From Clostridia bacterium (lineage in GTDB: Bacteria; Bacillota; Peptococcia; DRI-13; UBA5745), in the NCBI GenBank assembly GCA_018436095.1, contig JAHDMJ010000007.1:186001-250000 (forward strand): a DNA stretch of 64,000 nucleotides. Reading direction: 5' to 3'. A model generated the notes under the pieces. The model was not told where the DNA came from. It worked only from the letters and a program-made list of their open reading frames with translations, and did no database searches. This document shows positions 23,730 to 43,976 of the stretch, piece after piece; positions within the stretch are counted from its first letter, which is position 1; the number at the start of each line of letters is the position of its first letter. The position numbers and the translations under genes are program-made.

Positions 23730-23783
23730 AGGCAGATACTTAGGGCGCAGGGCAGTGACCGACCGGCGGATCTGTTCCGTTTT

Positions 23784-24080
23784 TTCGGTTGTATGTGTTT
23801 TCAGGGTTAGGCCTGCTCAAAAATTTCGGTTGTATGCACTTTTGGCACCTGGCCTGCTCAAAAATTTCGGTTGTATGCACTTTTGGCATCTGGCCTGTTC
23901 AATTTTTTCGGCTGTATGTAAAATGCAGAGCCTGAAACAACAATTTCAGCCCAAATCGGAGCATTTTTTTCGAGTGTATGCCGTTTTGAGGCCAAATTGA
24001 GGTCACATTTTACATACAAACGCAATTTTTGCTCATCTGGATTAGCCAATTTACATACAAACGCAATTTTTGTACAGACG
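23784..24080. repeat. Inverted-repeat element, locus A: arms repeated with a 41-bp period
   Basis: Left side: 41-bp units beginning at 23810, 23851 and 23892 (first two nearly identical, third diverged), each with GCTCAAAAATTTCGGTTGTA, and a degenerate copy near 23779. Right side: units at 24012 and 24053, also 41 bp apart, with ACATACAAACGCAATTTTTG, roughly the reverse complement of the left arm (about 20 of 25 matches). The middle holds TTTCAGCCCAAATCGG (23944) and GAGGCCAAATTGA (23988). No coding potential. Confidence 0.8.
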
Positions 24081-24726: not shown

Positions 24727-25454
24727 GCACCGCATTAAGAAATATGCTGGCTTTTTTCTGCGCTATGGCAGTCTTGGGCCTTTCTCTCTCCGTCCAGTTT
24801 AAAGCCCAGAACTCTCCTGACCGGGAGCTTTACCAACAAAGACAGGAGAATCTTATCGTCATGGTCAAAAACCTCACGGAAAAACGGCAGCGCCTGGGCC
24901 AAGAAATGTCGGACCTCTCTTCCCAGCTTTATGACCGCCGCAATGCCTTTGAGGACGAATCCTTGACCATTAAATCTTTAGAGCAGCAACTGGCCCGTTT
25001 AGAAATCGCCAATGGCACCAGGCCCGTTTCCGGCCAAGGATTGGAAATTCAGTTTCAGGCCACTTCCGCTGTGCAGTACACCGACCTGATCGTTCTGGTC
25101 AACGAGCTTTGGGCTGCCGGCGCCGAAGCTATCGCCGTAGGCGGCTACCGCCTTAATGCCAATAGCTACATTTTTTACAGTGACTCACCGGAAGGCCGTC
25201 TCATTTCCGTTAACAACAGCCCTGTTCCACTGCCTCTGCGGGTCCAGGCCATCGGCAGCGCCGGCAGCCTGGAAAGAGGCCTTACCCTGCCCGGCGGCTT
25301 TATGGATATCATGATGTACAATAAGATCTATCCCACATTGCGCCAAAAGGAAAGTCTGGAGTTGCCGGCAGTCACCAGTCCTCCCTTATATTATTATTTA
25401 AGCGCTTATTCCCCTGCAGCGGCTGCCAACCAGACCACAGAATCCACCCGCTGA
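24723..25454 (+). CDS. DUF881 family membrane-anchored protein (second copy)
   Basis: 243 residues: N-terminal helix ('MLAFFCAMAVLGLSLSVQF'), long coiled coil ('TIKSLEQQLARLEIANG') and DUF881 domain ('DLIVLVNELWAAGAEAIAVG', 'QAIGSAGSLERGLTLPGG'). GTG start inside the sbp stop, so translation is coupled. A short Ala/Thr-rich tail ends the protein. Forms a DUF881-sbp-DUF881 cluster with the copy at 23019. Confidence 0.9.
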   Translation: MSTALRNMLAFFCAMAVLGLSLSVQFKAQNSPDRELYQQRQENLIVMVKNLTEKRQRLGQEMSDLSSQLYDRRNAFEDESLTIKSLEQQLARLEIANGTRPVSGQGLEIQFQATSAVQYTDLIVLVNELWAAGAEAIAVGGYRLNANSYIFYSDSPEGRLISVNNSPVPLPLRVQAIGSAGSLERGLTLPGGFMDIMMYNKIYPTLRQKESLELPAVTSPPLYYYLSAYSPAAAANQTTESTR

Positions 25455-25519
25455 CTTTGCTGCCGGCGGGTGATTTGCATACAAACGGTAAAAAGAGCAG
25501 GTACGGACAAGACAAACCG

Positions 25520-25870
25520 AAGTCACTGAAAAAGTCGCGTAAGCTAATCTCGTCATCTAAATCCGAAAAAATTTGAACGACTTTTCAGGCTCCTCATCTG
25601 GGTGGTCTATTTTGTGCAAAAATGCAGGTTTGTATCATCAACTCAAGTGTTTTGCTCAAAATTGCAAGTTTGTAGAATGCATTTTGGTCTGGAAATATGG
25701 TTTCACCCCATTTATGGGGCCAAATTTGTTCCAAAGCAGGAATTTAGAGGTATACAAACCTGCATTTTTGCTCAGTTAGCTAAAGCGAATGATGACAAAC
25801 CTGCATTTTTGCTCAGTTAGCCTATGCGAATGATGACAAACCTGCATTTTTGAGCAGTCAGGCCCGACAG
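25520..25870. repeat. Inverted-repeat element, locus B: three 41-bp units opposite two inverted copies
   Basis: Right side: 41-bp units start at 25754, 25795 and 25836 (third partial), each with ACAAACCTGCATTTTTG. Left side: inverted copies at 25616-25634 and about 25655-25674 (40-bp step). The 19-bp arm 25616-25634 is a perfect reverse complement of 25753-25771. Core GGGGCCAAATTTG at 25717. Upstream, TGAAAAAGTCG (25528) and CGACTTTTCA (25578) form another inverted pair. Downstream, AAGCTGACCGTCGT near 25877 resembles locus C. Confidence 0.82.
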
Positions 25871-25927
25871 AGGGGTAAGCTGACCGTCGTGGGCTGAAAT
25901 GTACAAGGCCTGTGATTTGCCGCCAAC

Positions 25928-25983
25928 TTTTTCACTGGCCCTTTTTCAGTGCCCTTTTTCAGTGCCCCTTTTCAGTGCCCTCA
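25928..25983. repeat. Short tandem array, about four 13-14 bp units
   Basis: TTTTTCAGTGCCC-like units repeated four times between locus B and the DUF3343 gene. The stretch 25455-26104 contains only repeat DNA and no gene. Confidence 0.75.
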
Positions 25984-26104
25984 GACAAACCCGGATTTTT
26001 GAGCCGTTAATTAAAGCCAATAACAGGGGCGGCCCCTTTTCTGCGTCGGGCAGAAGGGGGCCGTCTCGTCTGTTTTGGGTTTTTACAGGTTTTACCGCTC
26101 CGCC

Positions 26105-43020: not shown

Positions 43021-43330
43021 TTTTGGCCGATTTTAGCCTGAAAATGGACTGAAACCCCTATTTTGCAGGTAAAAACCTTTTATAAAATGAGGACACTGAA
43101 ACAGTCGTACAAGCTGACCGTCATAAAGCTGACCGTCATAAAGCTGACCGTCGTAAAGCTGAAATGTACAAAATTTGAGGTTTTGTGGCTGTTGTTCCTT
43201 TAGAATAGTAGATTTAAACTATGCCTACACTAAATATAGGGAGAAATCAGTGTTCAGTAGCGTAAAACTTGAAATTTTCAGCAGTTAGCTAATGCAAATA
43301 TCCATAAAACCTCATTTTTTGTACACACGG
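43021..43330. repeat. Inverted-repeat element, locus C
   Basis: Arms 43166-43188 and 43302-43324 are reverse complements at 20 of 23 positions (GTACAAAATTTGAGGTTTTG versus CAAAACCTCATTTTTTGTAC-like). The family core TTTTCAGGCTAAAATCGG is on the minus strand at about 43024-43044. Three 15-bp units AAGCTGACCGTCATA start at 43111, 43126 and 43141; a single relative is near 25877. Confidence 0.78.
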
Positions 43331-43390
43331 CAAGAAAAAGTGGTGAATCCATGGGGGCGTAAATTCGGATTGGATTGGGTGTGCCCGGCC

Positions 43391-43617
43391 GCTCAAAAAA
43401 CGAAGTTGTGTTGCAGCGAACATCAAATTTAGGCTAAAAGCAGAGGCTAACTGCACAAAAAACGAAGTTGTGTTGCACTATTTCCTTTAAATTTGGCTCA
43501 AATTACGAAAAACTACCCTCTAATCCGTCTACAACTTCGATTTTTGTGCATCTGGACCCGAAAAACGGTCAAATCCGCTGCCTGCCGGAACACAACCTCG
43601 ATTTTTGTGCAGTTAGT
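43391..43617. repeat. Inverted-repeat element, locus D: arms repeated with a 61-62 bp step
   Basis: Left arms at about 43391 and 43452 (CAAAAAACGAAGTTGTGTTG; 62-bp step). Right arms ACAACTTCGATTTTTGTGCA at 43531 and a variant ending at 43611 (61-bp step). 43452-43471 and 43531-43550 pair with one mismatch in 20. Core AAATTTGGCTCAAAT at about 43488. The whole stretch 42972-44028 has no supportable gene. Confidence 0.8.
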
Positions 43618-43870: not shown

Positions 43871-43976
43871 TTTATTTCAATGCTGTCTTCTAAACTCTAA
43901 TCATCTGCTCATTTTATTTCAATGCTATCTTCTAAGCTCTAATCACCTGCTCATTTTATTTCAATATTATCTGCCA
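43871..43976. repeat. 42-bp direct repeats, two and a half copies
   Basis: Units beginning TTTATTTCAATGCT at 43871, 43913 and (partial) 43955, with TCTTCTAAACTCTAATCA-like interiors. Directly downstream of the NYN gene, and followed by two short GATTTTCAATGCT copies. Confidence 0.8.

What the first reader, a model, noticed from the sequence alone, without database searches (positions are those of the whole stretch)
25520..25870. Locus B: perfect 19-bp arm pairing plus three 41-bp units
25616-25634 is an exact reverse complement of 25753-25771, while the right side repeats every 41 bp three times with GTTAGCnnAnGCGAATGATG linkers. The same 41-bp step as locus A, with a different arm word (TGCAGGTTTGTA), argues that the step itself is conserved, not the sequence. 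The linker words also match bits of locus C (CAGTTAGCTAATGCAAAT).
Basis: seen in the sequence. Interest (0 to 1): 0.72.

Follow-up and report, generated by a model that had tools for sequence, protein, structure and literature searches.

The report
Mobile palindromic repeat with helix-timed spacing
The repeat is one copy of a large family of short non-coding DNA elements scattered between the genes of an uncultured Clostridia species and one close relative; their paired words sit whole DNA-helix turns apart around bend-prone centres whose sequence varies, which suggests that an unknown protein grips them like transposon ends.

Summary
The 19-bp arm pairing and the three 41-bp units are present, but only two of the three linkers match. 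The locus is one copy of an intergenic family: 420 word copies in this genome, 100 in a sister species with its own word version, none in three other congeners. Elements have inverted arrays of a 21-bp word, usually 2-3 per side at 40/41-bp steps, around a core. The sister species has no element at this site, so it most likely inserted.

Neighbouring units on one side do resemble each other (P about 0.001 or less). What is conserved is geometry. Between 95 and 145 bp, the inner inverted pair occurs only at spacings 98-101, 109-111, 118-121, 129-131 and 139-141, about 10.3-bp steps. A/T tracts in cores that do not align with each other repeat at 10.3 bp (z about 12; controls about 2). This is not tandem copying.

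I read it as a MITE-like mobile element (TG...CA ends, apparent 3-bp target duplication) whose short, curved, helix-phased body lets a recombinase bring its ends together. No cognate transposase was found, and no bench evidence exists.

The parts
25455..26029 (.). Intergenic DNA largely absent from the sister species (about 575 bp here, about 130 bp there); contains the inserted element
   Evidence: Synteny with G004:C55; conserved blocks end at 25409 and resume at 26030
25613..25633 (-). Left word 2 (outer), ACAAACCTGCATTTTTGCACA read on -
25653..25673 (-). Left word 1 (inner), ACAAACTTGCAATTTTGAGCA read on -
25674..25753 (+). Core: imperfect inverted repeat (ATTTTGGTCTGGAAATATGG...CCCCATTTATGGGGCCAAAT) with A/T tracts about 10 bp apart; inner-pair spacing 101
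25754..25774 (+). Right word 1 (inner); 41-bp unit 25754-25794
25795..25815 (+). Right word 2; 41-bp unit 25795-25835
25836..25856 (+). Right word 3 (outermost), with the GAGCA tip enriched in outermost words
25510..25518 (+). AGACAAACC, left flank of an outer inverted pair GAAGTCACTGAAAA (25519-25532); possible 9-bp duplication or a fragment of a word
   Evidence: (pair I5)
25969..25991 (+). Outer inverted-repeat end TTTTCAGTGCCCTC (25969-25982) followed by AGACAAACC (25983-25991)
   Evidence: a similar outer segment is seen in L002
25985..26005 (+). Degenerate outlying word ACAAACCCGGATTTTTGAGCC
23773..24076 (.). Locus A: sister element, four left words and two right words at 41-bp steps, word CATACAACCGAAATTTTTGAGCA / CATACAAACGCAATTTTTGCTCA
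43165..43616 (.). Locus C: two more elements with other words (TGTACAAAATTTGAGGTTTT; CTAACTGCACAAAAAACGAAGTTGTGTT)

Best explanation
The locus is one copy of a non-coding, MITE-like mobile element family that has spread through the intergenic DNA of two sister species. Shown: many dispersed copies, empty orthologous sites, inverted 21-bp words with TG...CA tips, an apparent 3-bp A/T-rich duplication at the ends in the sister species, and words duplicated in tandem on each side at 40/41 bp. Also shown: spacing of the inner inverted pair in whole helical turns (about 10.3 bp), and A/T tracts with the same period in cores that share no sequence. Inferred: a recombinase, or a partner protein, binds the words on one face of the helix and brings the two ends of a body shorter than the DNA persistence length together. 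Only curved, in-phase bodies can close that loop, so copying selects for phase and curvature instead of core sequence. Extra words on each side would act as additional binding sites, as in elements with multi-repeat ends.
For: Copy number: 420 and 100 word copies in two sister species, 0 in three other congeners, reversed-pattern control 0; 365 and 191 with a second pattern, at most 1 in each of 44 other genomes of the class. Insertion: at this locus the sister species has conserved flanks and no element; most of 17 other sites have no element in the sister; about 12 of about 20 resolvable sister-species elements have no element in this genome. Ends: 2- and 3-bp flanks match beyond shuffles (29/49 vs 17.5, P<2e-4; 21/49 vs 13.2, P=0.001), 4 bp do not. 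Geometry: inner spacings occupy 17 of 51 values in five bands; Rayleigh Z 75 for 101 elements, best period 10.25; Z 19.0 for 26 cluster representatives, no null replicate of 20,000 reached it. Cores: A/T-tract power at 10.3 bp is 4.77 vs 1.42 in shuffles for 19 representatives, z 11.9; controls z 1.5 and 2.2. At 10-11-bp lag, A/T-versus-G/C class agrees (0.60 against 0.41-0.44 at half turns in the main family) while base identity among G/C pairs stays at chance. The outermost word has a distinct tip (Fisher 5.5e-7).
Against: No autonomous copy and no transposase with these ends was found: one rve (IS3-like layout) gene without matching ends, no Y1 transposase in this genome, one DDE_Tnp_1 match. 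Other transposase families were not searched. The 3-bp duplication is A/T homopolymer and could partly reflect a target preference. Empty-site flanks are scrambled, so exact junctions could not be read. About 10 of 37 sites hold an element in both species, more than I would expect from independent random insertion, so some copies may be ancestral or sites may be reused. Phase data say that some protein complex matters, not that it is a recombinase.
Confidence: 0.55

Rival explanations
1. A host DNA-binding or nucleoid protein uses the arrays as a bending or looping platform (a BIME-like chromosomal site). The protein binds the words in phase around a curved core; spread is a by-product.
For: Phase and curvature are kept in cores with unrelated sequence. 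Words carry a dyad-like GCAAWWTTGC centre (read from sequence). Divergent gene pairs seem to be avoided: 6 of 89 placed elements against 18 of 78 baseline gaps (crude gene calling). Phased words are what a cooperative binder would need.
Against: Most sites are not shared between sister species, which is hard for a conserved host function. Three congeners lack the words. The 3-bp flank signal fits insertion. No candidate protein was identified.
Confidence: 0.25
2. A structured RNA or single-stranded hairpin: the arms pair as a long stem and act as a terminator, an RNA processing site or a hairpin substrate.
For: Arms are inverted repeats and the core folds; 31 consensus pairs, 3 with a double change. 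A compensatory-looking change in one core (GGCC/GGCC to GACC/GGTC in L010).
Against: Covariation term is only -1.1 of -20.4 kcal/mol. Left and right words do not co-vary within elements (P=0.79). No Rfam match in the window. A stem does not require 10.3-bp phasing of its two arms.
Confidence: 0.08
3. Neutral satellite growth: the arrays and the 10-11-bp ladder arise only by replication slippage on short tandem repeats, with no selection on geometry.
For: Same-side neighbours are homogenised. Some cores contain 10-11-bp near-repeats such as CAAATACAGC, and some longer cores gain such units.
Against: The period is in A/T versus G/C class, not in base identity. Non-alignable cores share it. Insertions of about 10 bp occur at several different places in aligned cores. 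Slippage does not explain hundreds of dispersed copies with conserved words.
Confidence: 0.1

Closest known systems
MITEs of bacteria, in particular BrickBuilt of Porphyromonas gingivalis (PMC4596501)
   Same: Short, non-coding, intergenic, multi-copy, inverted-repeat ends, internal tandem units
   Different: BrickBuilt has one 23-bp minisatellite between a leader and a tail; here tandem units form both inverted ends, with helix-phased spacing and a curved core
Foldback-like elements and Galileo of Drosophila (PMC3688188)
   Same: Long terminal inverted repeats made of tandem subrepeats; in Galileo the subrepeats contain transposase-binding sites
   Different: Eukaryotic, far larger, known P-superfamily transposase for Galileo; helical quantisation of the body was not among the features I read
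IS21 / Tn7 / Mu type transposon ends (PMC10122671)
   Same: Several direct copies of the binding site at each end, terminal CA; IS21 repeat spacing is linked to wrapped, supercoiled ends
   Different: IS21 insertions have 5-bp duplications and 23-bp repeat separation; here 3 bp and 40/41 bp, and no IstA/TnsB-like gene was found with the rve model
REP / BIME / REPIN elements with RAYT transposases (PMC2817692, PMC3116915)
   Same: Abundant, intergenic, opposed copies of one word, species-specific versions, bound by host proteins in E. coli
   Different: No GTAG-type tag, no Y1 transposase in this genome, units are not single hairpins
BOX elements of Streptococcus pneumoniae (PMC3049150)
   Same: Modular intergenic repeat with a variable number of internal units, enriched between convergent genes
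   Different: BOX is boxA-boxBn-boxC in one direction; here the array is mirrored around a core

Membership tests
MITE (non-autonomous DNA transposon) | Terminal inverted repeats | tested here: met
   Inverted word pair in the G004 elements examined and in the 48 G000 elements
MITE (non-autonomous DNA transposon) | Short, without a coding sequence | tested here: met
   About 120-310 bp; nearly all intergenic (3 of 49 in G004 and 2 of 48 in G000 called inside an ORF by crude gene calling)
MITE (non-autonomous DNA transposon) | Target-site duplication | tested here: inconclusive
   3-bp match above shuffles (P=0.001) but A/T homopolymer; not tested for G000 multi-unit elements
MITE (non-autonomous DNA transposon) | Presence/absence at orthologous sites | tested here: met
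MITE (non-autonomous DNA transposon) | Autonomous relative with the same ends | tested here: not met
   All inspected word copies are short pairs; three transposase families searched, none with these ends. Other families not searched
REP/BIME/REPIN (RAYT system) | Cognate Y1 (RAYT) transposase | tested here: not met
   PF01797: none in G000, one in G004
REP/BIME/REPIN (RAYT system) | REP-type hairpin with a conserved tag such as GTAG | tested here: not met
   Word consensus ACAAACYTGCAWTTTTGCNCA
IS21/Tn7/Mu-type ends | Multiple direct binding-site repeats at both ends, terminal CA | tested here: met
   Words at 40/41-bp steps on both sides, tips TGNNCA; protein binding not tested
IS21/Tn7/Mu-type ends | rve-type transposase (IstA/TnsB/MuA) | tested here: not met
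   Only an IS3-like gene and a decayed relative found with PF00665
Foldback-like element | Long terminal inverted repeats composed of tandem subrepeats | tested here: met
Foldback-like element | Known foldback transposase | not tested
   No bacterial foldback transposase model to search with
Structured RNA family | Rfam match or strong covariation | tested here: not met

The most novel reading that the evidence does not exclude
A new class of bacterial dispersed element in which DNA geometry, not sequence, is the selected feature: inverted word arrays set whole helical turns apart around intrinsically curved cores of unrelated sequence, mobilised and read by a recombinase or architectural protein that belongs to no family I could search.
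Probability: 0.3. Interest if true: 0.82.

Novelty: new variant of a known kind. Interest (0 to 1): 0.6.

Why it matters
If true, this is a natural collection of about a hundred variants of one nucleoprotein design in which spacing may change only by whole helical turns. It would make testable how very short transposons bring their ends together, and why some elements carry tandem copies of their end sites. It would also give a sequence-only way to find elements that are selected for shape.

Tried and rejected
Phage and plasmid collections: no match. Rfam: none. Arm-arm co-evolution: rejected. IS3-like element as the parent: its flanks show no matching ends. RAYT as the driver: no Y1 gene in this genome. 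An autonomous 6-kb element suggested by words at G004:C29:3824 and 9824: rejected, each is half of its own short pair. Tandem copying as the source of the 10-bp period: rejected by base identity at chance. Literature: no paper found in five searches that describes helically quantised MITE bodies, but the library is open-access only.

Full report
WHAT WAS CLAIMED.

OBSERVATION. The pair and units are real. The left side is itself an array of two words 40 bp apart (25613, 25653), so the element is [left words, inverted]-core-[right words, direct]. Only two of the three right units carry the quoted linker. Locus A has the same layout with another word and exact 41-bp steps, and locus C holds two further inverted-pair elements.

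IT IS A DISPERSED FAMILY. The element matches 62 places in its own genome. The word pattern with up to two mismatches occurs 420 times in this genome (G000), 100 times in the sister species G004, and not at all in three other congeners; the reversed pattern gives zero. In the listed G004 copies the word nearly always starts TTAAAC instead of ACAAAC. A second pattern gave 365 and 191 copies and at most one in each of the other 44 genomes of the class searched. G004 matches the public record JAHDPO01, Clostridia bacterium isolate SM1-B15.1 (contig length and identity). The other named relatives carry MAG titles; I read their isolate codes as termite-gut samples from memory, not from a test.

IT INSERTS, OR AT LEAST COMES AND GOES. 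Around the window locus the sister species keeps both flanks (about 87% identity) but has only about 130 bp where G000 has about 575 bp. Mapping flanks of 17 other G000 elements to G004 showed no element at most sites and a G004-type element at three or four. The reverse mapping of G004 elements found about 12 sites without and about 7 with a G000 element among roughly 20 resolvable ones. Shared sites with unlike cores (L093/L110, L034/L125, L032/L111) suggest reuse or replacement; L097/L128 and L040/L136 may be ancestral. Counts of shared and empty sites are my reading of block positions, not a formal test. In G004, the 2- and 3-bp flanks match more often than shuffled flanks (29/49 and 21/49; P<2e-4 and P=0.001), and 4 bp or more do not. 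All are A/T homopolymers, so a target preference could contribute.

In 22 G000 elements of one subfamily, left and right inner words are no more alike within an element than across elements (P=0.79; second words P=0.997). Neighbouring words on one side are more alike (P=0.0013 left, P<1e-4 right). Words agree between sides only by subfamily. So local duplication is supported and arm-arm matching is not. The outermost word of an array has its own tip (GA.. in 25 of 69 outermost against 8 of 120 inner words, Fisher 5.5e-7), so arrays are not simply cut at random.

GEOMETRY. The distance between the innermost left and right words takes only the values 98-101, 109-111, 118-121, 129-131 and 139-141 between 95 and 145 bp; outside that range single elements lie at 76, 90, 150, 151, 172, 173 and 180. 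The best period is 10.25 bp for all 101 elements (Rayleigh Z 75) and 10.3 for 26 core clusters, one value each (Z 19; no null of 20,000 reached it). The cluster values were typed in. Same-side steps are 40-42 in the great majority, with a weak tendency for longer ones near 51, 59 and 70 (Z about 4, n=15). In the cores, A/T tracts recur at 10-10.5 bp. For 19 representatives that do not align with each other, power at 10.3 bp is 4.77 against 1.42 in dinucleotide shuffles (z 11.9); control windows from the same genome give z 1.5 and 2.2. At lag 10-11, A/T-versus-G/C class agrees but the bases at G/C pairs match only at chance. This points to phased A/T tracts, the known sequence basis of intrinsic DNA curvature, and not to tandem copying. 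I did not measure or model curvature itself. The cores are related within families, so the full-set z values overstate independence; the representative values are the ones to rely on.

MECHANISM. Shown: mobility in the sense of presence and absence, mirrored words, phase, phased A/T tracts. Inferred: a protein binds the words on one face and the short body closes into a loop; for a recombinase this is end synapsis. The body (about 120-160 bp) is at or below the DNA persistence length (textbook value, about 150 bp), so curvature and phase would matter. TG...CA tips and several direct binding sites at each end are also found in IS21-type transposons (PMC10122671), and long terminal repeats built of tandem binding sites are known from Galileo (PMC3688188). 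I found no transposase with these ends: PF00665 gives one IS3-like gene here, PF01797 none here, PF01609 one match here. That is the main weakness, and only three families were searched.

CONTEXT. By crude ORF calling, elements lie mostly in tandem or convergent gaps (55 and 28 of 89) and seldom in divergent ones (6 of 89, against 18 of 78 gaps in two reference stretches).

RNA. A consensus fold exists but its covariation term is small, and word pairs do not co-vary.

LIMITS. One genome per species; draft assemblies in which several contigs end at these repeats; no strain data; metagenome scans not available. Function is not shown by any experiment.

Noticed in passing
window 25873-25905 and 43111-43165: The right flank of locus B (AAGCTGACCGTCGTGGGCTGAAATGTACAA) resembles the left flank of locus C, where a 15-bp version (AAGCTGACCGTCATA) is repeated 3.5 times; L002 has it too. 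A shared border module.
   Followed up: no
window 25927-25981: A 13-bp tandem repeat (CTTTTTCAGTGCC, 4.2 copies) at the outer right end, built on the outer inverted-repeat word CACTGAAAAAG.
   Followed up: no
G000, e.g. C1:42399-42628, C7:60959-61187, C2:42126-42354: A second MITE-like family of about 229 bp with ends GGGCACTGAAAAAGTC (60 end copies with up to one mismatch), often next to the word arrays and carrying its own words (TAAAACCTCAAATTTTGTACA).
   Followed up: partly
G000 contigs C4, C5, C12, C20: Several contigs of the draft assembly end within or close to these elements, so the true copy number may be higher.
   Followed up: no
window 43871-43972: A 42-bp tandem repeat (2.4 copies, TTTATTTCAATGCTATCTTCTAAACTCTAATCACCTGCTCAT), again close to four helical turns.
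   Followed up: no
L130:5139-5418, L137, L138, L142: Mixed elements: an inner TTAAAC word pair (spacing 109 or 120) with ACAAAC words added outside, most at about 41 bp (one at 32 bp in L130), linking the two subfamilies.
   Followed up: partly
G004:C65:1332 (L158): A broken IS3-like transposase gene split across several reading frames.
   Followed up: no
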